Virus record (IMG/VR): IMGVR_UViG_3300050821_013652 | Location: 1-41,991 of that record | Source of the DNA: a virus | Strand: one strand, 5' to 3' | DNA: 41,991 nucleotides | Part shown: positions 8,775 through 35,783 of the stretch, piece by piece | Numbering within the stretch: position 1 is the first letter of the stretch | Layout: the number at the start of each line of letters is the position of its first letter | Notes under the pieces: generated by a model | Told to the model about the DNA's origin: nothing | The model's input: the letters and a program-made list of their open reading frames with translations, nothing else | Database searches by the model: none | Position numbers and translations under genes: made by a program

Positions 8775-8887
8775 AAACCCTGGTTTTTTCTTTTCAGCGC
8801 TAGATATGCCACAAATATACAACATCTGCCACACTTATGTAAGATATAAACTTTACTTTAATATCACTACTTGATAATCGGATATCT

Positions 8888-9841: not shown

Positions 9842-10096
9842 ATGAGTGAGTGGATTAGCGTTAAGGAGCGTTTGCCCGTACTAGGAGTGGACGAGCGGGG
9901 CGTTCGGAACCTTCCGTCCGAGGAAGTTTTGATTCATGTCCCTTCGAATGAGATCTTTGTGGTCGGCTATCTCACTATCTATGGTTGGAGGGAATGGGTC
10001 GGAACCGCCTGCGGGTGCTGCGCCTCGGTGGATGATCTAGACCTGCTAATTACACACTGGATGCCCTTACCACTACCTCCAAAGGAGCCTGAATGA
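9842..10096 (+). CDS. DUF551-family small protein, 84 aa
   Basis: Met 9842 is preferred (AGG seven bases before); 9821 is also in frame. It has the DUF551 hallmarks: SEWISVKERLP at the N-terminus, EVLIHVP, and the ending ITHWMPLPLPP. These small proteins are frequent accessory genes in phages; function unknown. Its stop overlaps the TerL start (ATGA), so it is cotranslated with packaging. Two more DUF551-like proteins occur at 19104 and 16289. Confidence 0.8.
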   Translation: MSEWISVKERLPVLGVDERGVRNLPSEEVLIHVPSNEIFVVGYLTIYGWREWVGTACGCCASVDDLDLLITHWMPLPLPPKEPE

Positions 10097-11361
10097 AAGA
10101 TGAAGTTCTAATGTCCCCCAAACAGATTCAGTTCATCCAGGAAGCCGATGCGAAGTACAACTTGGCGCACGGATCGGTGAGTTCGGGGAAAACCGTGTGC
10201 ACTCTATATGCCTTCCTGAGGTGGGTGTTTGAATGTCCAGGGGATAGTATAGCAATCTTTGGGTACTCAATGGGGTCGGTGTACAATAATGTGGTCTCTT
10301 TGCTGTATAACTCTGAGGAGCTGAGTTTATTTCGCCCTCTTTGCAACTGGTCTAGTAAAGGGGTTCTGTCGTTTGGTCTAAAGAATATAATATGTATCGG
10401 CGCAGGCGATGAGGGGGCTTTAGGAAAGATTCAGGGGATCACTCTCGATCTTTGCTACTGCGACGAGATGACGCTATATCCTGAGGTTGTGATAGACATG
10501 ATCCAAACCCGCCTGCGTCGAGACCACAGCAAACTATTTGCAGCCATGAACCCCAAGCAGCCGTCTCACAAGTGCAAACAGTGGATCGACAGGGCTGAAA
10601 GCGATCCGGACTATTACGCACTACATTTTGTGCTTGATGATAACGTATTCTTAAGTGAATCATATAAGGCTGATATGAGGAGATCTTCGAGTGGTCTCTT
10701 CTTCAAGCGAAACATTTTGGGTATTTGGTGCCTTGCTGAGGGAGCGATATATGACTTCTTCGACCCTAAACTCCATGTTGTTGTTCGCCCTCCTAGGGCT
10801 GCTGAATACTGGATTTGTGGGATTGACTACGGCACCCGGGCCCCGTTTTGCTGCCTCCTCATTGGGGTCAGTACTGGTCGCTTTGATCAGACTGGTAGAA
10901 AACTCTGGGTAGAAAAAGAATATTATTGGGATTCGGCTGTACGTGGAAGACAAAAGACTAATTCAGAGCTTGCGGCGGATGTGCAGCGATTTATTGCCGA
11001 CTATGCTGTGCGTGGGATTTACGTTGATCCCAGTTGCGCTGCCTTTAAATTGGATTTGCAACGGCTGGGCATTCACTGCATCGACGCTAATAACGACGTG
11101 GACTTTGGTATTCAGTCTGTGGCTACTGAGATGTACAAGGGAAATTTGGTTATATGCTCGGAGTGTACCAATCTTATCAAAGAAATTGAAGCATATGTAT
11201 GGGATGCTAAAAAGGCTCAGAAAGGGGAAGACGCCCCACTGAAAGGGTCTGGGATTGCCGATCATGCATGCGATGCATTAAGATATGCTATAGCGACCCA
11301 TAAGGTTCCAAAAGCGCTCGATGGGGACGGTAAAACTCTTGGCGGGTTTGGGAGGGTGTAG
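10093..11361 (+). CDS. terL: Large terminase subunit, 422 aa
   Basis: Packaging motor ATPase and headful/end-cutting nuclease. Walker A-like GSVSSGKT at residues 27-34; Walker B with catalytic Glu in DLCYCDE (about 119-125); coupling motif FAAMNP (about 149-154). The C-terminal RNase H-like nuclease shows CGIDYG (D near 245), IYVDPS and DHACDALRYAI acidic sites. Length is normal for the PBSX/Terminase_3 type. Coupled upstream to the DUF551 gene (ATGA), and its stop shares a base with the next GTG start. Confidence 0.93.
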   Translation: MKDEVLMSPKQIQFIQEADAKYNLAHGSVSSGKTVCTLYAFLRWVFECPGDSIAIFGYSMGSVYNNVVSLLYNSEELSLFRPLCNWSSKGVLSFGLKNIICIGAGDEGALGKIQGITLDLCYCDEMTLYPEVVIDMIQTRLRRDHSKLFAAMNPKQPSHKCKQWIDRAESDPDYYALHFVLDDNVFLSESYKADMRRSSSGLFFKRNILGIWCLAEGAIYDFFDPKLHVVVRPPRAAEYWICGIDYGTRAPFCCLLIGVSTGRFDQTGRKLWVEKEYYWDSAVRGRQKTNSELAADVQRFIADYAVRGIYVDPSCAAFKLDLQRLGIHCIDANNDVDFGIQSVATEMYKGNLVICSECTNLIKEIEAYVWDAKKAQKGEDAPLKGSGIADHACDALRYAIATHKVPKALDGDGKTLGGFGRV

Positions 11362-13156: not shown

Positions 13157-15310
13157 TTGTCTTTCTACTATCCGCCTTGGAATAATAATTTAGAGCCCAA
13201 CCAAGGCAATGTACGCGCTTGGCTTGATAACCTTTACAGCAAATTCCAGCCTATCGAACAAGCTAGGTGGAACCAAAGTAATATCGATACGCTTTTTTAT
13301 GCGGGCGAACAGAATTTCATAAATCGATATTTTAATTTTACACCCTCGTTTAGCCATCAAAACTTTTATTTCAACTTATTGCAGCAACCAATAAACATGG
13401 TAACAGGGTATCAAAGACAGCACAGGAAGTCAATCAATTACATTGCTTCCGAGGGGGGAGATTCCCAGACCACGGATCAGTATACAAGGATTATCGATCA
13501 TGCAGCTAATGTGGGAGGAATCAATGAACAATTTTCTAAAGCTTGTGAGCTTGCCGCCATCTCCGGGCTGGTATTGGTGCAGCCCTACCTTAACTTTGTG
13601 GGAGACGATCCGGCTCAGGGGGAGCTGAAGGCAAAGATCTGGGAGTACAACAGCTTTCTCGTGGATCCATATGCGAGGGATCCTGGGTTTGCAGACGCAC
13701 AGTTTATCTGGTGCCAAGAATATATTTCAAAACATGAGGCTGAAAATCGATTCCCTGGGAAACTCGCAGCCATCACTCCAATGTCAGGAACGCCTCAAAG
13801 GTATGGGTCGTTCTACTTCTTACCTGAAAATTACAATATGGCCCGAAACGATCTCATGGTGCTGTCTTACGTGTGGTACCGCTGGAAGAGGAAGAAAAAA
13901 CGATTGTACTCTCGATCCAGGAATCAGTTTTTTGATTTCGCGGGCGGACAAGAAACCATAGACGCGATGCTCTACAATATCCCTGATATGGAAGTGGTGG
14001 AGGTGGAATGCCCTACTTGGAAATTAGCCGTGGTTCTCAACGATCAGCTAATGTTCCAGGGGGATAACCCTTTGGGGTTTGACGAGTGTCCCGTGGTTCC
14101 GGTTTACTGGAACTATGAACCACATATTAATTATCACGATTTGAGGGTGAGATCTTTAGTTAGAACTATGAGATCGAGCCAGCATTTATTTAATAGAAGG
14201 GTTATAATTAACCATGATATTAGCGAAGCTACTATTAACCAGGGCTGGAAAAGAAAGGTCGGGGCAGTTGCTAATGAGGACAATTTAAAGAAAACCGGCC
14301 AGGGTTGGGATATTATAATTAATGAGGAATACGAGATGCAGGATTGCGATAAGATCTTGCCTTCCGGGGTTCCTCAATCCGATATGGAGCTGGCTAACCA
14401 GATGCAAGCTCTTATTTTCTCCACTTCTGGTGTAGATATAGAGAATTGGTCCGGGCAGGATGATAAGCAGACTTCTTCTCTCACCGTCCTTCTGAAACAG
14501 GCTGCAAATTTAATGGTTTTGCAAAAATACTTCGATCAATGGGACTTTTCTCTAAAGCTTTTGGGAGAAAGGATGCTCTCTATCATTCAAAACAATTGGA
14601 ATGCCTCGAAAGTATCGCTTTATCTAGGAGAAGAACCGTCCCCTTACTTTTATTCTAAGATCTTTAGCAAATACCAGGTAGTAATCGCTGAGGGATTGAA
14701 TACTGCGATTCAAAGGCAGCAGGAGTTTCAACAAACGATTGAGCTCAACCAGATCTTGGGAGGGATCATTCCAGCGTCCTATATCGCCTCTGTGGCCACA
14801 TTACAGGGAAAAAATAAGCTTATGGAGGTTCTTGGACAACAAGAGCAGCAACAGGCGGCCGTTCAAGAAGAGGCTACTAACATTCAACACGCCTTTGAAG
14901 AGGCGAAACTCAAGGAATTATATGCTAAGTCTGCCAATTACCTGGCCAGTGCTCGAGAGAGGCACGGAAGAGAACAAAGTAATATCGGTCTTTTGGAAGA
15001 GCGTGTCAGCCAAATTGCGTCGAACAATAGCATTTCTACGAAAAACAAAGTGGAAGCCTTGGACAAACTCATGGACGTTATAGCCAAGCACGGAGAAATT
15101 GAAGCTAGTTTGAAAATGAATGAGATCCAGAGCCTGGATGCCCAAGAAGAAGCTGAGGGTGATCGAGCGAAAGAAGATGCTAGGAGAGACTCGCTCGCTA
15201 ATGAATTCGTGATGAAGATGCTTTCGGGCCTGCAAGCGCCTGGAAGTGATCAGTCTGGCGGCGGGGACAACATGATGCAGGGTCAACAGCCAGAGAGCGG
15301 CATGCAATGA
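13157..15310 (+). CDS. Portal protein, P22-like, 717 aa
   Basis: Forms the dodecameric DNA channel at one capsid vertex and docks the terminase and tail. Length (P22 portal 725 aa) and motifs fit the P22-type family: LDNLYSKFQPIEQARWNQSN near the N-terminus, FNLLQQPINMVTGYQRQHRK (about 75-94), IWEYNSFLVDPYARDPGF, and the long C-terminal helical barrel with Gln/Glu/Ala-rich stretches (QQEQQQAAVQEEATN; AEGDRAKEDARRDS). Start is TTG 13157 with TTGAGG seven bases before. It ends in an ATGA overlap with the next ORF. Confidence 0.9.
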   Translation: MSFYYPPWNNNLEPNQGNVRAWLDNLYSKFQPIEQARWNQSNIDTLFYAGEQNFINRYFNFTPSFSHQNFYFNLLQQPINMVTGYQRQHRKSINYIASEGGDSQTTDQYTRIIDHAANVGGINEQFSKACELAAISGLVLVQPYLNFVGDDPAQGELKAKIWEYNSFLVDPYARDPGFADAQFIWCQEYISKHEAENRFPGKLAAITPMSGTPQRYGSFYFLPENYNMARNDLMVLSYVWYRWKRKKKRLYSRSRNQFFDFAGGQETIDAMLYNIPDMEVVEVECPTWKLAVVLNDQLMFQGDNPLGFDECPVVPVYWNYEPHINYHDLRVRSLVRTMRSSQHLFNRRVIINHDISEATINQGWKRKVGAVANEDNLKKTGQGWDIIINEEYEMQDCDKILPSGVPQSDMELANQMQALIFSTSGVDIENWSGQDDKQTSSLTVLLKQAANLMVLQKYFDQWDFSLKLLGERMLSIIQNNWNASKVSLYLGEEPSPYFYSKIFSKYQVVIAEGLNTAIQRQQEFQQTIELNQILGGIIPASYIASVATLQGKNKLMEVLGQQEQQQAAVQEEATNIQHAFEEAKLKELYAKSANYLASARERHGREQSNIGLLEERVSQIASNNSISTKNKVEALDKLMDVIAKHGEIEASLKMNEIQSLDAQEEAEGDRAKEDARRDSLANEFVMKMLSGLQAPGSDQSGGGDNMMQGQQPESGMQ

Positions 15311-19595: not shown

Positions 19596-22500
19596 ATGTC
19601 GATTACAACTTCTGGGAATTTGGGTTAACAAAAGTGGCCCAAGTAAAATCTTCTCTGATAGACTTGGAACTCGCAGCGTAAAGTCGGCGACAACAAGGGG
19701 CAAGATTATGGAAAATGAACTAAAGATGAAATTTATAGACCCGCAAGAGCCAAGCCACGAAGGGTTGCACTATAGAATGTGGGTTTCTAAAGAAGAGGTT
19801 TTAAAAGATTTTCCTAATCAGCCTGAACGTAGCAAGCGAGAAGACTTTTGTAATCATGAATGGACAGGAATTCCAACAACCGAGGAAGCTTGGTGTATGA
19901 AGTGTGGAATTGAAACCCATGAATTACAAAAGATGCGGTGCTCTGAACATTGTGGAAACACAGTGAGGGAAGTGCAATAGGCTTCCTCGCCAACTGTCCG
20001 GAAATTCCAGATAGTTGGTCACAAAAGTAACAGAAATGCCTTTAATATTACAGTCGCTTGCGCCTGCGATGCTTTACACCCCAACTCCCACAATGAACTA
20101 TATTCTGGTTTGCGACAAGGTGTCGATGCCAGTAAACGGTGGAACGACTTGCCGCTTTATGCGACCAAGAGCGCTCCAACCTCCAACCATAAATTGTGTG
20201 GTTGTAAAATCTTCTCTGATAGACTTGGAACTCGCAGCGTAAAGTCGGCGACAACAAGGGGCAAGATTATATGATGAAGTTAATTTCTATATGTCACAAG
20301 TGCATGGCGACGAAAGAAGATTGTAATACAAATTGGTTAACAGTGATGGATGATGGTTCCATACCAGTTAGATCGATTCTGCTTTGTCCTGAATGCAGAA
20401 AAAATAGAAGTTATATTGATTCGTTTTATCAGCCTGAACGTAGCAAGCGAGAAGACTTTTGTTTGACTAAATTGGCAGATCAATACATCGAAGAGTGGGA
20501 ACCTCTTCCTTTTTGCAGACATGCGGAAAGTGAAGAATTTTATATCAAAGGTGTATATGACTTTTCTGACTGGCTAAAACAAAAGATGCGGTGCTCTGAA
20601 CACGATGGAAACATCGTGAGGGATAAGTAGAGAAAGTCCCCGCCTAGATGTTTGTAGTCTAGGTCACAAAAGTAACAGAAATAGACAGTTGGGAAATAGC
20701 GGGATTGACCCTCCTGCACAGGTTCCACAGCGCGATATTATAGATGCGCAAATGGCTTTTTTCGGTTTTGTTAAATTAACTGTGCCGAAAGATAATTACT
20801 TAGTTGCAGAAAGACAGGCTGCATAATTAACGAACAAGTAATTTTACAGGATTTATTTTAATTGGTCCTGTATAAATCAGACCTAATTGACTTGGACCCC
20901 TAACCCGAAAGGTATGGAAACAAGGGCCAAGGTATTAAGAAGTTTTACAGTGTGGCAAATGGCGAACACGAGCATTGAGTTTACGAATTTCGGCGATACA
21001 GTCTTCTCGGAGGGTTTGTTCCTCCAGGGTGATCTCGCGGTTTCCTCTTCCCAAATTCAGGGGAAAGGATTCTCTGAACTTGATAATCAATTCGCAGTGC
21101 CTTTTCTTTATAATCAAATAGGGCAAAATCTGCCGACAAATATCAAGCAGTCTATGTCCGGTAACGACCCATTCATAACAGTCTCTTTTAAAGAGTTTGT
21201 CTCTGGTTTCCTTAAATGCTGCGGAACAAGTTCCTGCAAACGTTTCTTGAAGCCATTGGAAAAGGCGAATGTCTGTATTAGAAACCTTAAGGACGCATCG
21301 ATAATGGCCATTTTTATAACCATCATTGGGTTTGTTTTTAAGCTTGCAGGCATGGAAGCACCCTTCTCCATCGACAATTCCGGCAAGATAGGCCAATTTG
21401 ATAGGATCGTGAATTTTTGGAATATAAAGATTTCTGTGTTTGTGATCTTTGTTAATGAATTTTTTCATAAATTCTTCTTTCATATGTTCACTAGACAGTA
21501 TACACATGAGACGAATTTAATACCAGGCTGACAGACTAAGGCGGTCAGACACCTTAATAACAGGTGAAGCGATAGTCGGGTCTTCCGAGGAAACCGGAAG
21601 AGGTAGGCAGAAATGACCTATCCCCCAGCAATGGGAGTAACAATTCGCAAGAAGGCGTTCTCGCCTGGGTCTCTGAGAGACTTGCAGTTGCGATGCGCCA
21701 AGCTGAAGACTTGATCCTCCGCGACTACATTGTATCGGCAGCGTCCGAAATCAATGCAGGTGGTGGTGCCAACGGTAGAATTGTTGCCGTTGTAAAATCT
21801 TCTCTGATAGACTTGAAACTCGCAGCGTAAAGACGGCGACAACAAGGGGCAAGATTATGGGACGTGAAAATTACAGAGCATATAGTGAACGTGATAAAGA
21901 ATGTTTATATAAACAAGATATGCAAGAACAAATCATGGAATATAATCAGCCTGAACGTAGCAAGCGAGAAGACTTATCAGGTTGTTCCAATTGTAAAGGA
22001 TTAGAAGAGGCTTGTGAGAATTGCTTTTCGCAAGACGGGTTCTGTCCAAATTGTGGACGATCGATAAGATGCGGTGCTCTGAACACGATGGAAACATCGT
22101 GAGGGATAAGTAGAGAAAGTCCCCGCCTAGATGTTTGTAGTCTAGGTCACAAAAGTAACAGATAGGACAACCCAACTAACCTTGGGGTCTCCGATTTTAG
22201 CCTTTTGGCTGCAACTTTGGATACCAACAATGCTCAGAAGTTTCTTTCTGGCGTTGAAGGATCTTTGAAGTTCGGTACAGGTCCAGTGCGCTCGTCCTAT
22301 TTCATGCTGTCCTCTACGGAGTTACAGCCTGACTTCGACGCGCTTACAGGTGAAGGCTTTCTTTCTATATGGAATTACGGTAGAATTGTTGCCGTAAAAA
22401 AATCTTGGGTAATTGACTTGGAGTTCCTCGCCGCGTAATGTGGACGGATAATAAGGGGCAAGATTATGAAGAATTTAGGAACGATAAGAAATGTTACAAC

Positions 22501-23027
22501 ATGGCAGATGGAAGAATCGGACATTCCTAAGATTCCGATGCCCATTCGTTCTGACATCCTACATGATCAGCCTGAACGACTAAATCCTGAGACCCCCACA
22601 AGGGGATGCGATAGTCTGAACTCTATGGAGACATAGAGAGGGAGATCCGAAGAGGTTTCCCCGCCTGGATGTTTGTAGTCTAGGTCACAAAAGTAACAGA
22701 ATGCACAACACCGACGCACTCCCAACGGAGTACGGCAACGTTTTCAACATCCGTATTTTAACCAGCTCAGAAGCTCCGGTTGCACGCGGTGCATCCATGA
22801 ACGGAAGAGATGTTTATTATAATACTGTTGTTGGAAAACAAGCTATTACGCACATTAACCAGGATGGTTATTCGATGAATTTAATTTATCGAGATCCTTA
22901 TTATTCTGGAATGTTAGCGCAAAATGCTACCTTGGCTGTCAAATTTGCACAGGCTCAAGCGCTTACCCAAGACACTGCTATTCGAAATTCTCTTTCGACT
23001 CGTGGTGGAAACTTTGTAGCGGCATAA
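19596..23027 (+). CDS. Major capsid protein, six exons split by five group I introns, 328 aa
   Basis: Exons: 19596-19625, 20039-20190, 20685-20783, 21611-21776, 22166-22381, 22704-23027. Joined length is 987 bases, one open frame of 328 codons plus stop. The spliced protein reads like a P22/N4-type coat protein: MSITTSGNLG^PLILQSLAPA, LQPPT(I)^QLGNSGIDPP, NAGGGANG^DNPTNLGVSD, FGTGPVRSSYFML, LSIWNYG^HNTDALPTEYG (carets are introns). It builds the icosahedral shell. Unspliced mRNA would stop at once after codon 10 (TAA), so coat synthesis depends on splicing. Junctions 1, 2, 4 and 5 are well supported by P1, P10, terminal G and phase; junction 3 (20783/21611) is less certain (alternative 20766/21603). 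Confidence 0.88.
19626..20038 (+). mobile_element. Group I intron 1 (413 nt)
   Basis: P1: exon ATTTGGGT pairs with intron GCCCAAGT (19637-19644), with U.G at the splice site. P7: GTAGCA (19829-19834) with TGCTC (19939-19943). P8: CTTTTGTAAT with ATTACAAAAG. P9: ATTGTG-GAAA-CACAGT, a GNRA loop. A further stem CCAACT/AGTTGG precedes the end. It ends with G at 20038. The block 19643-19709 is base-identical to 20204-20270 of intron 2. Carries the 90-aa ORF at 19708. Confidence 0.85.
19708..19980 (+). CDS. Intron 1-encoded small ORF, 90 aa
   Basis: ATG follows AAGGGG at the position used in all four sister introns. The frame runs through P7, the P8 loop and P9. QPERSKRED and MRCSEH are translations of the ribozyme core, not protein homology. 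The intron-specific part in the P8 loop codes HEWTGIPTTEEAWCMKCG, with a CxxC pair. Either a real small zinc-type protein or a non-functional open frame. Confidence 0.4.
   Translation: MENELKMKFIDPQEPSHEGLHYRMWVSKEEVLKDFPNQPERSKREDFCNHEWTGIPTTEEAWCMKCGIETHELQKMRCSEHCGNTVREVQ
20039..20190 (+). other. Capsid gene exon 2
   Basis: Codes PLILQSLAPAMLYTPTPTMN through LQPPT plus two bases of the next codon. Typical coat N-terminal arm with LVCDKVSMPVNGGTTCRFMR. The frame runs on into intron 2 and stops at 20240-20242, giving a false C-terminal extension. Confidence 0.85.
20191..20684 (+). mobile_element. Group I intron 2 (494 nt)
   Basis: P1: CAACCAT pairs with GTGGTTG, 7 bp with terminal U.G. P10: 3' exon ACAGTT pairs with AATTGT directly before the guide. 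P7: GTAGCA (20440-20445) with TGCTC (20592-20596). P8: CTTTTGTTT/AAACAAAAG. P9: CACGATG-GAAA-CATCGTG. The last 100 bases (from 20585) are identical over 95 nt to intron 4. Contains a 119-aa ORF with two Cys pairs. Confidence 0.88.
20271..20630 (+). CDS. Intron 2-encoded zinc-ribbon-like ORF, 119 aa
   Basis: Starts ATGATG after AAGGGG. The part before P7 codes ISICHKCMATKED ... LLCPECRKN, two CxxC pairs in zinc-ribbon spacing. The P8-loop part codes FCRHAESEEFYIKGVYDFSD. The shared QPERSKRED and QKMRCSEH pieces are intron core. Longest of the four sister ORFs. Confidence 0.45.
   Translation: MMKLISICHKCMATKEDCNTNWLTVMDDGSIPVRSILLCPECRKNRSYIDSFYQPERSKREDFCLTKLADQYIEEWEPLPFCRHAESEEFYIKGVYDFSDWLKQKMRCSEHDGNIVRDK
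20685..20783 (+). other. Capsid gene exon 3
   Basis: Completes the Ile codon (AT+A), then QLGNSGIDPPAQVPQRDIID AQMAFFGFVKLT plus two bases. The 3' boundary is chosen because it restores VKLTVNDLSPS; ending at 20766 is the alternative. Confidence 0.65.
20784..21610 (+). mobile_element. Group I intron 3 with antisense homing endonuclease (827 nt)
   Basis: Core elements: P7 GACTA (21534-21538) with TAGTC (21573-21577); P8 CACCT-TAATAAC-AGGTG; P9 CTTCCG...CGGAAG. A 5' helix AATTACTT/AAGTAATT fits P2. It lacks the sequence blocks of the other four introns. Boundaries: with exon end CTGT^ the guide would be GCAG, and the spliced frame is best. A stronger P1 (TTTTCGGT/GCCGAAAG) would put the 5' site at 20766. 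The endonuclease gene lies on the opposite strand between the 5' helices and P7. Confidence 0.75.
20935..21507 (-). CDS. LAGLIDADG homing endonuclease in intron 3, 190 aa
   Basis: A single LAGLIDADG motif in LAYLAGIVDGEGCF (residues 38-51, with the metal-binding acidic pair D-G-E-G), then the usual beta-sheet region (GHYRCVLKVSNTDIRLFQWL; CYEWVVTGHRLLDICRQILP YLIIKKRHCELIIKF). One motif means it should act as a homodimer. It would cut intron-less coat genes and drive homing of intron 3. It lies antisense to the capsid gene. Starts at 21483 and 21468 are also possible; no clear ribosome site was found. Confidence 0.85.
   Translation of the reverse strand: MCILSSEHMKEEFMKKFINKDHKHRNLYIPKIHDPIKLAYLAGIVDGEGCFHACKLKNKPNDGYKNGHYRCVLKVSNTDIRLFQWLQETFAGTCSAAFKETRDKLFKRDCYEWVVTGHRLLDICRQILPYLIIKKRHCELIIKFRESFPLNLGRGNREITLEEQTLREDCIAEIRKLNARVRHLPHCKTS
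21611..21776 (+). other. Capsid gene exon 4
   Basis: Completes a Val codon (GT+A), then NDLSPSNGSNNSQEGVLAWV and the conserved SERLAVAMRQAEDLILRDY helix, ending GGGANG. The 3' end is fixed by the P1 helix of intron 4. Confidence 0.75.
21777..22165 (+). mobile_element. Group I intron 4 (389 nt)
   Basis: P1: AACGGT pairs with GCCGTT (6 bp, terminal U.G). P10: exon GACAA pairs with TTGTT next to the guide. P7: GTAGCA (21957-21962) with TGCTC (22075-22079). P8: CTTATC/GATAAG. P9: CACGATG-GAAA-CATCGTG. Ends at G 22165. Phase 0 joining gives GANG-DNPT, the conserved coat motif. Contains an 81-aa Cys-rich ORF. Confidence 0.9.
21857..22102 (+). CDS. Intron 4-encoded Cys-rich ORF, 81 aa
   Basis: Same start context (AAGGGGCAAGATTATG). 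The P8 loop codes GCSNCKGLEEACENCFSQDG followed by FCPNCGR: three CxxC pairs, stronger than in the sister ORFs. QPERSKRED and the last residues derive from the ribozyme core. The frame after P8 differs from introns 1 and 2, so the C-terminus diverges (RCGALNTMETS). Confidence 0.45.
   Translation: MGRENYRAYSERDKECLYKQDMQEQIMEYNQPERSKREDLSGCSNCKGLEEACENCFSQDGFCPNCGRSIRCGALNTMETS
22166..22381 (+). other. Capsid gene exon 5
   Basis: 72 codons, DNPTNLGVSDFSLLAATLDT to FLSIWNYG. Contains FGTGPVRSSYF, a hallmark of this coat family. Both boundaries fit P1/P10 pairing. Confidence 0.88.
22382..22703 (+). mobile_element. Group I intron 5 (322 nt, shortest)
   Basis: P1: TACGGT pairs with GCCGTA (the loop AGAATTGTT is identical to intron 4). 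P10: exon ACAA pairs with TTGT. P7: GACTA (22578-22582) with TAGTC (22612-22616). P8: CCCC-ACAA-GGGG region. P9: TCTATG-GAGA-CATAGA, a GNRA loop. Last stem CCTGGA/TCTAGG. Ends at G 22703. A compact core without large loop insertions but still with a 56-codon open frame. Confidence 0.9.
22466..22636 (+). CDS. Intron 5-encoded open frame, 56 aa
   Basis: Begins at the same ATG as the other three (after AAGGGGCAAGATT) and ends in P9. MKNLGTIRNVTTWQMEESDI has no Cys pair. Conserved start but no domain; may be a remnant. Confidence 0.3.
   Translation: MKNLGTIRNVTTWQMEESDIPKIPMPIRSDILHDQPERLNPETPTRGCDSLNSMET
22704..23027 (+). other. Capsid gene exon 6, C-terminal third
   Basis: HNTDALPTEYGNVFNIRILT through VARGASMNGRDVYYN, QDGYSMNLIYRDPYYSGMLA and the end STRGGNFVAA. 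An ATG at 22701 lies three bases inside intron 5 and is not expected to be the true start. Confidence 0.88.
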
Positions 23028-27578: not shown

Positions 27579-30403
27579 TGTCTAGTAAAATTGTTGTCGG
27601 TCCTTTCGGGAAGGGGTTTAGGGATGATGTCCCCGCTTTTTATGTAGACAACGATTCATTTCCGTCCTTGATCAATGCTTATCAGTGGAGAGCTAGGGTA
27701 AAAAGGAAAAGGGGAACCAGTACGATTTGCCGATTAGAGCGTTTTTTCAACTCTGCTATATCTTCCTATGGCTCAACCACTTCATTTAATCTTGTTGGCG
27801 GTGCGGGAAATTTACTTTCTGGATTCAATTTAGACCTTTCTGGGAATATCGTGCCCGGAACAATCCAATTCACCGATTCTACTACTAGTGCCGTTTACAC
27901 TGACGTAAATGAAGATGGTACCCTTCAAGGTTCTCCTAGCGGATCTGGAACAATTAACTATGCTTCCGGAGCAATAATAATTTCCGGAGGGGGTACAAAT
28001 ACCATCAACCTGGCTACTTTTACCTATTATGCAGATCTTCCAGTAATGGACATTGAGGATTTGAACTTAAATGCTACTCAATTTCCACAAAATTTGTCTT
28101 TTGATACAAAATATTCGTATCAAATCGTGACCGCATCTCCCTACTATTCTTATGATGTCAGTTTTTACAAAAATCCAGCCTCAGCAAGCTATCCGAGCTA
28201 CGTAGCCAAGTCCACGCCTACTCCGATCCGCTGGAATGGACAAAATTATCAACAATTTTGGTCGACAAATTACGAAAACTCCTTGTGGGCAACCAATGGA
28301 ATTACACAACCATTTACTACTACTAATATAGGCATGCAGTTCAAATTGATCACTGGAGTTAGCATAAGTACAGCGGGTCCTCCTGCCACAGTTGTGTTAA
28401 CAATTTCCGCGAGTGGACTGATCATTGGGGATTTCGTCTTCATCAACGAGGTGGTGGGGAATACAGGAATAAATCTCCAAACAGGATATGTTACGGCAGT
28501 GTCGGGTTCATCAGTCACTGTAATCTTGCCAAATGCCACGATCGGCGGATCTTACTCTTCTGGGGGAATCGCTCAATATCTAACTAGCAGCGCCGCGGCG
28601 CCTGCCAAGGATTGTCTCAGGTGGTACGACGGAGATCCAACTAACGGAAGTCAATTTTCTCCCACTCTGACCTCTGGATTTGGATGGGTAAATTTTGCCC
28701 CACCGATTTATTTTGGACCTCCGGAAGCTACAATAGAAGACCTGTCATCAGATATTTACTATTTGGTTGGTGCCAGGATCATAATTCCATATAAAGATCG
28801 TCTACTCTTTTTGGGACCAATCGTTCAGTCTTCGGGAATACATTCATCTAGCGCCCCTCATTATCTACAAGACACCATCATATTTAGCCAGAATGGAACT
28901 CCATACTACACTTCTTCATTTACTGGCAGTCCAACAGCCGGAAATACGGCATTTGTACCCATTTTGACACCTCCTAATCAAGGAGCCACGGCGAATGCTT
29001 ATTTTTCGGATGTGACCGGTTACGGGGGATATATCACAGCAGGGTTTGCCCAGGCAATGACAACTGTGGGAGCAAATCAAGATGTGTTATTGGTGGGATT
29101 TACTAATCGACAAACTAAGGTCTTGTACACTGGAAACGATCTTCTTCCTTTTGCTTTCTATATAGTAAACTCCGAATTGGGATCGACTGCTACATTCAGT
29201 TCTATTGTGATGGATCGAGGAGTAATTTCCATAGGAGATCGAGGATTCACTCTTACCGACCAACAATCTTGCTCTAGAATAGATCTTGAAATTCCTGATT
29301 ATGTATTTCAATTTGATCTTTTAAATAACGGAACTCAAAGAATTACTGCTCAAAGAGACTTTGTTAACGAATGGATTTATTTTTCCTATCCATACAATAA
29401 TGAAGAAAACGCCACTTCTCCATTTCCAAATCAAACTCTTTTCTATAATTACCGTGATGAGTCTTGGGCAGTCTTCAACGAATCTTATACGACTTATGGA
29501 CCATTTAGAAGACAGACTGGTTTTACATGGCAGACCGTCGGATCTTATTTCTCCTCTTGGAACGCATGGAATCAACCGTGGAACGCCTCTACGTCTTCTC
29601 TTCTAGAACCTGAGGTGATCGCGGGCAATCAACAAGGTTTTATTATTGCTAGAAGAGATGATACAACATCTGAAGCACCTTCATTATATATCTCTTCGAT
29701 TTCCGGCAATACTGTTACATCTCCTAATCATAACTTGAATAATGGAGATTTTGTTTATTTTCTTAATGCTTTGGGTATGAGTAATTTTAATTCTACTCCA
29801 CAGACATCTCCTCCTGTTTACATCATTTGGCAAGTGACCATATTGTCAGTTAATACATTTTTGATATCTAGTGATCCGGAGTTGCCAGAACCAATAGTTC
29901 CATTTGGAAATTATGTTGGAAATGGAACGATAACCAGATTGTATATTCCGCAAATCCAATCCAAGCAATTCCCAACAGCTTGGGAGATGGGAAGAAAAAC
30001 TCGTATAGGGACTCAACAGTATCTTTTTACAACCACACCGAATGCTCAAATTACTCTTCAATTGTTCCTCAGTCAGAATGCCTCCACCCCCTTCAATAAT
30101 CCACCATATGTTCCCGATCCTAATGCTGAGAATAATTCTTTAGTATTTTCTAACATCGTATACACATGTCAGGAAAGTACGAATCTTGGACTCACTGCGT
30201 CCAATATAAATTTACAGCAAATCGTTCCTAGTCAAGCACAAACATGGCACAGAATGAACACATCACTGATAGGTGACACTGTGCAAATTGGGATCACTCT
30301 AAGTGAAAAACAGATGTTCGACAGTACGTTAACAAACCAGGTGGCTGAAATTGAGCTCCATGGAATGATTATAGATGTCTCACCCAGTCAGATGCTCTCA
30401 TGA
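27578..30403 (+). CDS. Tail hub / DNA-stabilising tail protein, 941 aa
   Basis: I choose ATG 27578 (TAATG overlap). The N-terminus VGPFGKGFRDDVPAFYVDND SFPSLINAYQWRARVKRKRG is characteristic of the large beta-rich tail proteins that take the place of P22 gp10 or T7 gp12. The end is WHRMNTSLIGDTVQIGITLS and AEIELHGMIIDVSPSQML. The middle is beta-rich with an inserted FCCH-like repeat (ISASGLIIGDFVFINEVVGN). It probably forms the short tail tube or hub and seals packaged DNA. Overlaps the next gene by four bases. Confidence 0.65.
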   Translation: MSSKIVVGPFGKGFRDDVPAFYVDNDSFPSLINAYQWRARVKRKRGTSTICRLERFFNSAISSYGSTTSFNLVGGAGNLLSGFNLDLSGNIVPGTIQFTDSTTSAVYTDVNEDGTLQGSPSGSGTINYASGAIIISGGGTNTINLATFTYYADLPVMDIEDLNLNATQFPQNLSFDTKYSYQIVTASPYYSYDVSFYKNPASASYPSYVAKSTPTPIRWNGQNYQQFWSTNYENSLWATNGITQPFTTTNIGMQFKLITGVSISTAGPPATVVLTISASGLIIGDFVFINEVVGNTGINLQTGYVTAVSGSSVTVILPNATIGGSYSSGGIAQYLTSSAAAPAKDCLRWYDGDPTNGSQFSPTLTSGFGWVNFAPPIYFGPPEATIEDLSSDIYYLVGARIIIPYKDRLLFLGPIVQSSGIHSSSAPHYLQDTIIFSQNGTPYYTSSFTGSPTAGNTAFVPILTPPNQGATANAYFSDVTGYGGYITAGFAQAMTTVGANQDVLLVGFTNRQTKVLYTGNDLLPFAFYIVNSELGSTATFSSIVMDRGVISIGDRGFTLTDQQSCSRIDLEIPDYVFQFDLLNNGTQRITAQRDFVNEWIYFSYPYNNEENATSPFPNQTLFYNYRDESWAVFNESYTTYGPFRRQTGFTWQTVGSYFSSWNAWNQPWNASTSSLLEPEVIAGNQQGFIIARRDDTTSEAPSLYISSISGNTVTSPNHNLNNGDFVYFLNALGMSNFNSTPQTSPPVYIIWQVTILSVNTFLISSDPELPEPIVPFGNYVGNGTITRLYIPQIQSKQFPTAWEMGRKTRIGTQQYLFTTTPNAQITLQLFLSQNASTPFNNPPYVPDPNAENNSLVFSNIVYTCQESTNLGLTASNINLQQIVPSQAQTWHRMNTSLIGDTVQIGITLSEKQMFDSTLTNQVAEIELHGMIIDVSPSQMLS

Positions 30404-34697: not shown

Positions 34698-35783
34698 ATG
34701 ACCTTACCTTCTGCATCCAATAACTACTCAATTGCATATGGAGCAAGCTCTAATAGTGCACAAATTCCAGTTTTTAAAAATAGAGCCCCAACGGCCCAGG
34801 ATTCTAAGTATCCTTTAGGGAAGCCCTGGATCTATCCTGCTAGTAATGCAGCTTATCTCTTGACTTCTCTGTCCGGAAATCCTGTTGTAGCCTCATGGCT
34901 TTCTTTGGGGACTGCTGGGGGAGCTTTAAACTCTCTCTCTGATGGATCTACTGTCGTTACTCCGACAGCTGGATCAATTGAAATTCTCGGAACTGCTGGT
35001 CAAATCACCTCGACGGGAACAAACAGTCCGGGCGCTATCACTCTGTCGTTACCTTCTGCCATTACTACCCCCGGATCTCTAACTACCACTTCTTCTCTAT
35101 CTGTTGGAACTACTCTAGGAGTCACTGGTCTGAGCACACTGGCGGCCTTAACTCAAGTGGGTGCTGCAAGTATTAACGCTAGTGGATCTGGAGTTACTAT
35201 CATAGGGACCGGGGGAACTGGAGCTGTTGAAATCGGCAATGCCACGGGAAATACCGCTGTCACTGGCGGAATGTCCATAGGAACCACACTGGGCGTGACA
35301 GGACTCACGACTCTCGCAGCTTTAACTCAGGTCGGAACTTCTCATATCAATATTACTGGATCTGGGGTCACCGTAATCGGTACAGGTGGTACTGGCGCAG
35401 TGCAGATCGGCAATGCCACTGGGAACACTGCTGTGACTGGAAGTTTAACGGCTTCCACCACTTTGACTGCTACTGCTGGAGCGATTACAGCAACAAATGG
35501 GAATTTGGTCCTTGGCACTACTGGAAATAAGCTAGTTATTCATGCCTCGACAGCTGCTAGTGACTCTATTGGAACATCTGTTGCCATGACTGCTGGTTCT
35601 GTGACCGTTTCTACTAGTGCTGTCACGGCCAGCTCAATCATCTTCGTATCCATAAATACAATAGGAGGGACGGCCGGTGCTGTGTCTGCACCTGTGGCTT
35701 CTATTGTTCCAGGTGTTAGTTTCGTAATTAATTCTAGTTCGGGAAGCGATACTAGTACAGTCAATTATTGGATAGTTAACTAA
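34698..35783 (+). CDS. Tail fibre protein, 361 aa
   Basis: Residues 15-75 (AYGASSNSAQIPVFKNRAPT AQDSKYPLGKPWIYPASNAA) match the N-terminal domain of the fibre at 500, so both probably attach to the same virion site. The middle has two near-identical ~60-residue repeats (SVGTTLGVTGLSTLAALTQV G... TVIGTGGTGAVQIGNATGNT AVTG). The C-terminus is a short beta segment (ASIVPGVSFVINSSSGSDTS). AGGAG lies ten bases before the ATG. First gene of the 34.7-41.8 kb fibre module. Confidence 0.75.
   Translation: MTLPSASNNYSIAYGASSNSAQIPVFKNRAPTAQDSKYPLGKPWIYPASNAAYLLTSLSGNPVVASWLSLGTAGGALNSLSDGSTVVTPTAGSIEILGTAGQITSTGTNSPGAITLSLPSAITTPGSLTTTSSLSVGTTLGVTGLSTLAALTQVGAASINASGSGVTIIGTGGTGAVEIGNATGNTAVTGGMSIGTTLGVTGLTTLAALTQVGTSHINITGSGVTVIGTGGTGAVQIGNATGNTAVTGSLTASTTLTATAGAITATNGNLVLGTTGNKLVIHASTAASDSIGTSVAMTAGSVTVSTSAVTASSIIFVSINTIGGTAGAVSAPVASIVPGVSFVINSSSGSDTSTVNYWIVN

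What the first reader, a model, noticed from the sequence alone, without database searches (positions are those of the whole stretch)
19596..23027. Capsid gene split into six exons by five group I introns
Read directly: a continuous coat protein appears only if five segments are removed. For introns 1, 2, 4 and 5 each cut is fixed by a P1 helix (exon:guide of 6-8 bp with a terminal U.G), a 3' terminal G, a P10 match in most, and restored phase (30+152+99+166+216+324 = 987 bases, 329 codons). Core P7/P8/P9 elements are visible in all five, and P8, P9 and the last stem covary between sisters (P8: CTTTTGTAAT/ATTACAAAAG, CTTTTGTTT/AAACAAAAG, CTTATC/GATAAG, CCCC/GGGG). A small number of phage genes with several group I introns are known (Staphylococcus phage Twort orf142 has three); five in one capsid gene, with exons down to 30 bases, is extreme.
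Basis: partly seen in the sequence, partly recalled or inferred. Interest (0 to 1): 0.95.

Follow-up and report, generated by a model that had tools for sequence, protein, structure and literature searches.

The report
Capsid gene with core-less mini-introns
A phage coat-protein gene is cut into seven pieces by five self-splicing (group I) introns plus a 47-base "mini-intron" that has the splice signals but no ribozyme of its own, and the introns appear to add a self-destruct tag to coat protein made before splicing; both features recur in dozens of related phages and I found no report of either.

Summary
More than 70 relatives carry the same coat gene uninterrupted. Aligned to them, the window gene has seven exons (972 nt, 323 aa) and six interruptions. 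Five are genuine group I introns: their core helices, including the P3/P7 pseudoknot, covary strongly across 37 sister introns. It hides a 39-nt micro-exon between a 47-nt insertion (20767-20813) and the true intron (20853-21647, with an antisense LAGLIDADG gene).

The 47-nt insertion is the surprise. It has a perfect P1, a P10 and a terminal G, but no catalytic core. Such mini-introns (30-93 nt, or longer with a homing-endonuclease gene inside) occur at several sites in 32 coat genes and 6 portal genes. In the coat genes each (37/37) lies 21-102 nt upstream of a full group I intron. Most likely they are spliced by a neighbouring intron's core.

Second surprise: reading the exon frame into these introns gives a tail ending Ala-Ala-stop, usually Leu-Ala-Ala (91/101 in frame, 0/202 in other frames). 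This mimics the SsrA degradation tag, presumably to destroy truncated coat protein.

Splicing, the catalyst and degradation are inferred, not shown.

The parts
19596..19625 (+). exon 1 of the major capsid gene (30 nt, aa 1-10)
   Evidence: matches N-terminus of intron-less homologs
19626..20038 (+). group I intron I1 (413 nt); P1 TTGGGT/GCCCAA; stop TAA at first codon
   Evidence: both core halves hit by profile of other phages' introns; boundaries
19708..19980 (+). open frame (90 aa) inside I1, starting in L6 and running through P7/P8; function unknown
   Evidence: no PHROG hit and no Pfam hit above cut-off
20039..20190 (+). exon 2 (152 nt)
20191..20684 (+). group I intron I2 (494 nt); shares a 97-nt stretch identical to I4 near its 3' end
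20191..20242 (+). in-frame read-through tail of I2 ending ...LIDLELAA* (SsrA-like)
20271..20630 (+). open frame (119 aa) inside I2; function unknown
   Evidence: no family hit
20685..20766 (+). exon 3 (82 nt), ends ...ATGGCTTTTTTCGGT (MAFFG)
20767..20813 (+). core-less mini-intron (47 nt)
   Evidence: boundaries against homologs; P1+P10 p=0.001 vs shuffles; no core hit
20760..20766 (+). 5' exon side of mini-intron P1 (TTTCGGT)
   Evidence: pairs with guide GCCGAAA, terminal U.G
20780..20783 (+). P10 strand of mini-intron (CTGT), pairs with 3' exon ACAG (20814-20817)
20784..20790 (+). guide (GCCGAAA) of mini-intron P1
20767..20826 (+). in-frame read-through tail of mini-intron ...NYLVAERQAA*
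20814..20852 (+). micro-exon 4 (39 nt, TGCIINEQVILQD)
   Evidence: residue-for-residue match to homologs
20853..21647 (+). group I intron I3 (795 nt), a different subfamily from I1/I2/I4/I5; P1 TACAGGAT/GTCCTGTA; tail LF* without tag
20935..21507 (-). antisense LAGLIDADG homing endonuclease gene (190 aa) inside I3
   Evidence: PF00961 E 2e-5 above curated cut-off; phrog_5046 E 3.8e-21
21648..21776 (+). exon 5 (129 nt)
21777..22165 (+). group I intron I4 (389 nt)
21777..21830 (+). in-frame read-through tail of I4 ...LIDLKLAA*
21857..22102 (+). open frame (81 aa, Cys-rich) inside I4; function unknown
   Evidence: no family hit above cut-off
22166..22381 (+). exon 6 (216 nt)
22382..22703 (+). group I intron I5 (322 nt)
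22382..22438 (+). in-frame read-through tail of I5 ...VIDLEFLAA*
22704..23027 (+). exon 7 (324 nt) with stop codon

Best explanation
The major capsid gene is a mosaic of seven exons. Five interruptions are ordinary group I introns that remove themselves. The sixth, 47-nt interruption is a mini-intron that keeps only the substrate half of a group I intron: a P1 that marks the 5' cut, a P10 that aligns the 3' exon, and the terminal G. It has no ribozyme core. It is most likely spliced by the core of a neighbouring full-length intron, probably the one 21-102 nt downstream with which it always occurs, by docking its P1/P10 helix into that core. Some minis at another site carry a LAGLIDADG gene in the P1 loop, so minis probably spread by homing while borrowing a neighbour's ribozyme. 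A second layer deals with the ribosome arriving before splicing. In introns past about codon 60, or in the mini just upstream of them, the upstream reading frame continues into the intron and ends Leu-Ala-Ala-stop or similar. This copies the SsrA tag, so truncated capsid fragments would be degraded by ClpXP-type proteases instead of poisoning capsid assembly. Shown: gene structure, cores, P1/P10/G signals, association of mini with full intron, in-frame tag. Inferred: actual splicing, which core acts, degradation.
For: Full introns: U|...G| boundaries; covariation of P3-P9 in 37 sisters, 32 of 37 pairs with two-sided changes; profile hits to both halves of all five window introns. Mini: 31 short and 6 long-loop cases in 32 capsid genes, plus 8 distinct ones in 6 portal genes. 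P1+P10 averages 12.7 bp against 2.6 in shuffles and 2.6 with exons of other sites. P1/P10 covariation is 1.069 against 0.225 shuffled and at most 0.233 slid. U...G boundaries cost 13 score units against 281 or more for any other letter pair. Guide to 3' end is about 24 nt in most. Neighbour dependence: 37/37 minis are followed by a full intron within 21-102 nt. Coat genes with a full intron at aa 95-125 have a mini in 32/35; all others 0/86, 19 of them with full introns elsewhere (p 3.5e-26). Mobility: five long-loop minis carry a 291-293-aa LAGLIDADG gene; in four the stop codon directly follows the guide. Tag: -AA* in 91/101 in frame, 0/202 in other frames; wobble positions and all three stop codons vary. 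Fulls behind a mini 3/38, at aa 40 or earlier 0/20. RT-PCR-proven introns of mycobacteriophages LittleE and BAKA also end ...ATAAA* and ...LAAAAA*.
Against: No RNA or protein data exist for these phages and the host is unknown. No pairing between the mini's spacer and the downstream core was found beyond chance, so nothing in the sequence says which core acts. Portal minis sit near the N-terminus and carry no tag, so supplying a tag cannot be the minis' only role. Three genes with a full intron at aa 95-125 lack a mini (L213, L256, L264). Ten of 101 tails do not end in AA (several of these end -VA). In a divergent clade many tails end in -VAIS/-EVALS-like sequence instead. T4 td, an enzyme gene, has no tag. 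The statistics treat introns as independent although many are related by descent.
Confidence: 0.68

Rival explanations
1. The 47-nt insertion stays in the mRNA and the ribosome hops over it (programmed translational bypassing, as in T4 gene 60 or Magnusiomyces byps).
For: Length (47 nt) is close to the 50-nt gene 60 gap; the 5' end is a hairpin; a stop codon follows in frame.
Against: Bypassing needs a landing triplet matching the take-off codon: 0 of 25 phase-0 minis match even in the first two letters, and 6 minis split a codon. P10 pairing with the 3' exon, P1 U.G and the terminal G have no role in bypassing. Long-loop minis of 325-987 nt are far too long.
Confidence: 0.03
2. The mini is a decayed intron in a dead gene, or an assembly error in repetitive introns.
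For: Sister introns share stretches up to 97 nt identical, which can confuse assemblers.
Against: No word of 11 or more nt of the mini recurs in the window. Different minis with matching P1/P10 are found in 32 coat genes and 6 portal genes. The exons downstream are under strong constraint.
Confidence: 0.02
3. The mini is spliced with group I-type signals, but not by the neighbouring core: a distant or already excised intron core, or a protein (LAGLIDADG maturase, RNA ligase), does it.
For: Several full cores occur in most of these genes; some minis carry a LAGLIDADG gene, a family with known maturases (maturase role from general knowledge). No spacer-core pairing was seen.
Against: Strict adjacency to a downstream full intron in MCP (37/37; 0/86 in genes without one) and in portal genes. 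Most minis carry no protein gene.
Confidence: 0.22
4. The Ala-Ala-stop tails are a by-product of RNA structure (P5 extension) or aid termination; they are not degradation tags.
For: In full introns the tag lies in the P5 region, and similar GC-rich words recur.
Against: The tag is in the exon frame in 91/101 and never in the other two frames although intron phases 0, 1 and 2 all occur. Wobble bases vary and all three stops are used. Minis have no P5 yet carry it. Introns at aa 40 or earlier lack both extension and tag. Unrelated mycobacteriophage introns carry it.
Confidence: 0.12
5. The mini's main role is to split a homing-endonuclease target in the most conserved part of the gene, giving immunity to homing; being spliceable is the price.
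For: Minis sit in the most conserved stretch of the capsid protein and some still carry a LAGLIDADG gene. This concerns origin and benefit and is compatible with the best explanation.
Against: No cleavage site is known; full introns with endonuclease genes at other sites have no mini.
Confidence: 0.35

Closest known systems
LittleE capsid intron and BAKA/Optimus tail intron of Cluster J mycobacteriophages (PMC3706429)
   Same: Group I-like intron in a capsid or tail gene, U|...G| boundaries, antisense endonuclease gene in LittleE, splicing proven by RT-PCR; in-frame tails also end AAA*.
   Different: One intron per gene; the passages read mention no mini-intron, no micro-exon and no comment on the tail.
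Jug and crAss-like phages with many group I introns (PMC12363816)
   Same: Many small group I introns (about 206 nt) breaking essential phage genes; splicing supported by metatranscriptomes.
   Different: The passages read describe 2-3 fragments per terL gene and no core-less introns or tags.
Group I introns of T4 (td) and Twort
   Same: Core architecture and P1/P10 logic; an in-frame stop in the intron.
   Different: td stops at the splice site without a tag; reviews describe the stop as placed immediately after the junction (PMC3073962). Here it lies about 18 codons inside so that a tag is encoded.
Trans-spliced (split) group I introns of organelles (e.g. PMC3873408)
   Same: A group I reaction with parts not in one continuous intron.
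   Different: There the pieces re-form one complete core; here the intron has no core sequence at all (from title/abstract, and general knowledge).
Euglenoid group III introns and spliceosomal introns versus group II (general knowledge)
   Same: Short introns that keep splice-site signals and rely on catalytic RNA elsewhere.
   Different: Derived from group II chemistry; no group I counterpart known to me.
SsrA (tmRNA) tag ...ALAA and ClpXP (general knowledge)
   Same: C-terminal LAA/ALAA/YALAA ending.
   Different: Encoded by the intron in cis, not added by tmRNA to stalled ribosomes.

Membership tests
Group I intron (the five full introns) | 5' splice site after U, U.G in P1; 3' terminal G | tested here: met
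Group I intron (the five full introns) | Core helices P3-P9 with P3/P7 pseudoknot | tested here: met
   covariation in the sister family; both core halves detected in I1-I5
Group I intron (the five full introns) | Rfam Intron_gpI covariance match | tested here: inconclusive
   no hit, but the proven T4 td intron also gives none at gathering
Group I intron (the five full introns) | GTP-dependent self-splicing | not testable with these tools
   needs in vitro transcription
Group I intron (the 47-nt mini) | P1 with U.G, P10, terminal G | tested here: met
Group I intron (the 47-nt mini) | Catalytic core P3-P8 | tested here: not met
   47 nt only; no profile hit. It works like a group I splicing substrate but is not filed as a group I intron
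Translational bypass element (T4 gene 60 / byp) | Matched take-off and landing codons | tested here: not met
   0 of 25
LAGLIDADG homing endonuclease (ORF 20935-21507 minus) | LAGLIDADG profile match above curated cut-off | tested here: met
   PF00961
Major head protein phrog_1357 | Profile match and co-linear homologs | tested here: met
SsrA-type degradation tag | C-terminal (L)AA | tested here: met
SsrA-type degradation tag | Causes ClpXP-dependent proteolysis | not testable with these tools
   needs a reporter assay

The most novel reading that the evidence does not exclude
Phages have evolved a second-order intron: a 30-50-nt (or homing-endonuclease-bearing) element that carries only P1, P10 and the terminal G of a group I intron and is spliced by the ribozyme of a neighbouring intron. 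This is a group I parallel to how spliceosomal and group III introns depend on catalytic RNA outside the intron. In addition, phage introns in virion genes encode an SsrA-mimic degron so that pre-splicing translation products are destroyed.
Probability: 0.62. Interest if true: 0.97.

Novelty: new variant of a known kind. Interest (0 to 1): 0.93.

Why it matters
Natural group I introns are thought of as self-contained ribozymes. A recurrent, mobile, core-less form would show that group I splicing can become a shared service inside one transcript, the step usually invoked for the origin of spliceosomal introns from group II, and it can be tested in a tube. Intron-encoded degrons would be a new answer to an old problem: in bacteria ribosomes reach introns before splicing, and truncated capsid subunits should be toxic to assembly. 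Both features can be checked with one synthetic gene. They also explain why such capsid genes are missed or mis-annotated: micro-exons of 21-39 nt and 30-nt introns defeat standard gene callers.

Tried and rejected
Rfam search with permissive cut-offs found no group I hit. Kept as uninformative, because the T4 td control also fails at gathering.

Translational bypass was rejected for lack of codon matching. Assembly artefact and pseudogene were rejected by recurrence and constraint.

Pairing of the mini spacer with the downstream core: no signal (7.4 bp observed against 8.2 shuffled).

Tag supply as the sole reason for minis was rejected because portal minis carry no tag.

Two short 'introns' called by the aligner (L166 at aa 69; L131) were discarded: one is part of a full intron, the other lies in a different gene version. 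Some boundaries in the divergent clade (about 40% identity) are not reliable and were not used in the main counts.

Near-identity search of the intron block in isolated phages: no match. The bacterial genome collection gave only metagenome bins with conflicting taxa, so the host is not assigned. A direct attempt to fetch more mini-bearing genes with the conserved region as query returned intact matches of that region.

Full report
WHAT THE WINDOW IS. The window is a whole virus record of 41,991 bases from a tailed phage with a large terminase (10093-11361), a P22-like portal (13157-15310) and, at 19596-23027, the major capsid gene. No near relative of the intron block is in the isolated-phage collection. 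The capsid protein has distant isolates at 24-31% identity and hundreds of IMG/VR relatives.

CHECK OF THE OBSERVATION. In 72 of 80 fetched relatives the protein is one uninterrupted tblastn match. These relatives show that the intron-3 junction is wrong: they read MAFFG-TGCIINEQVILQD-QEGVLAW, and the window encodes the missing 13 residues at 20814-20852. I wrote a spliced aligner that fits a profile of intron-less relatives to DNA and allows introns in three phases. It recovers 413@aa10, 494@aa61, 47@aa88, 795@aa101, 389@aa144 and 322@aa216. Run with no boundary letters imposed, 47 of 54 genes give the same score as with U|...G|. Forcing any other letter pair costs 703-1461 units over 56 introns, against 15 for U/G.

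THE FIVE FULL INTRONS ARE GROUP I. Thirty-seven small sister introns from relatives were aligned. P3, P4, P5, P6, P7 (pseudoknotted with P3), P8, P9 and a P9.1-like stem pair in 92.8% of cells, against 67% in shuffles and 36-45% in slid controls. Covariation is 0.677 against 0.206, and 32 of 37 pairs have two-sided changes. A profile of those introns, which excludes the window, hits the 5' and 3' halves of I1-I5 and nothing else in the window. Rfam finds none of them, but it also misses the proven T4 td intron at the gathering cut-off. I1, I2, I4 and I5 are close sisters (I2 and I4 share 97 identical bases); I3 is a different subfamily with an antisense LAGLIDADG gene.

THE MINI-INTRON. The 47-nt piece between GGT and ACAGGC cannot hold a group I core. 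It has a 7-9 bp P1 (TTTCGGT/GCCGAAA, terminal U.G), immediately preceded by a P10 strand (CTGT) matching the 3' exon (ACAG), and it ends in G. It is not unique. Among 200 distinct capsid genes the aligner finds such minis at aa 88, 92, 104 and 114 in 32 genes of the close clade; these include six with 325-987-nt loops that keep the same P1/P10 near the 3' end. Portal genes have them at aa 8, 32 and 36, and one phage contig (L205) has minis in both genes. P1+P10 averages 12.7 bp, against 2.6 for shuffled minis and 2.6 for exons of other sites; 30 of 32 have p<=0.01. Pairs covary across sites and with synonymous exon changes (covariation 1.069 against 0.225 shuffled; the guide was chosen as the best match, so the paired percentage is biased upward, while the shuffle and slide controls are less so). 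U...G costs nothing in 30 of 31 minis, whereas every other letter pair costs at least 281 units. The guide-to-3'-end distance is mostly 22-26 nt, and the last bases (AA[A/T]TG) resemble those of full introns.

EVERY CAPSID MINI HAS A FULL NEIGHBOUR. In 37 of 37 the next intron downstream is full-size, 21-102 nt away. Of capsid genes with a full intron at aa 95-125, 32 of 35 have a mini; of the others 0 of 86, although 19 of those have full introns elsewhere (p 3.5e-26). The portal pairs (8+26, 32+44, 36+51) repeat the rule. Five long-loop minis at aa 104 contain a 291-293-aa LAGLIDADG gene; in four of them it ends ...NNTPS*, so the P10 strand and guide are also its last codons and the stop follows the guide, 14-15 nt from the 3' splice site. 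I therefore read minis as mobile elements, or endonuclease-less remnants of them, that keep only the substrate part of group I splicing and borrow a ribozyme.

THE TAG. Reading the upstream exon into the intron gives a striking result. Introns at aa 40 or earlier stop within a few codons (0/20 end in AA). Full introns beyond that with no mini upstream end in Ala-Ala-stop in 58/64, mostly ...LAA*. Minis do so in 33/37, with three of the four others ending -VA. Full introns directly behind a mini do so in only 3/38. In the other two frames it is 0/202 (p 1.5e-66 against in-frame 91/101). Alanine wobble bases and all three stop codons vary, so the amino acids are selected, not the bases. Early introns have a short P5 and late ones a P5 extension that holds the tag. 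Two RT-PCR-proven introns in unrelated mycobacteriophages, LittleE capsid and BAKA tail (PMC3706429), also end ...SVATAAA* and ...LSDDLAAAAA* inside the intron; those two introns share a 156-bp 5' segment and are not independent of each other. The early Tuc2009 capsid intron (aa 55) and T4 td do not. The literature describes the stop as sitting immediately after the junction to keep ribosomes out (PMC3073962; PMC3984707). These introns give that up to encode a tag. The simplest reading is an SsrA-mimic degron for truncated virion protein.

WHAT IS SHOWN AND WHAT IS INFERRED. Shown from sequence: exon-intron structure, group I cores, splice signals of the mini, its recurrence and adjacency, the in-frame tag. 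Inferred: that splicing occurs, that the neighbour's core removes the mini, that the tag leads to proteolysis. Introns related by descent were counted as independent; the effects are large and span about 20 insertion sites, but a tree-aware test is still needed. Ten literature searches found no report of core-less group I-type introns or intron-encoded degrons; most subscription papers and bioRxiv are not in that library.

VERDICT. The finding is confirmed in substance and corrected in detail. What lies behind it, neighbour-dependent mini-introns and intron-encoded degradation tags in phage virion genes, is more surprising than the original claim.

Noticed in passing
L166, L214, L215, L232, L274 (capsid aa 104): Mini-introns of 946-987 nt contain a sense LAGLIDADG gene in the P1 loop; in four of the five the stop codon directly follows the IGS and lies 14-15 nt from the 3' splice site.
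   Followed up: yes
L088-L204, divergent capsid clade (about 40% identity): Read-through tails often end in -VVAIS, -EVALS, -YGVS and the like instead of -LAA; possibly a different degradation signal for a different host.
   Followed up: partly
window 19708-19980, 20271-20630, 21857-22102: Sense open frames of 81-119 aa start in L6 and run through the intron core (NQPERSKRED...); some are Cys-rich. No family match; similar frames occur in sister introns.
   Followed up: partly
L012, L124, L132, L194, L197, L198, L205 portal genes: Portal genes carry the same intron family as mini + full pairs near the N-terminus; the window's own portal gene is intact.
   Followed up: yes
window 34698-35783: C-terminal K1 capsule-lyase domain (PF24146), likely a tailspike against capsulated hosts.
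   Followed up: no
L111 and L256, capsid aa 90: Introns of about 1.26 kb with a 306-aa sense LAGLIDADG gene near the 5' end and the usual group I 3' tail.
   Followed up: partly
JF937101 (LittleE) 8846-8874; JF937090 (BAKA) 28186-28218: In-frame tails of two experimentally proven mycobacteriophage introns end in AAA*, apparently not remarked on.
   Followed up: partly
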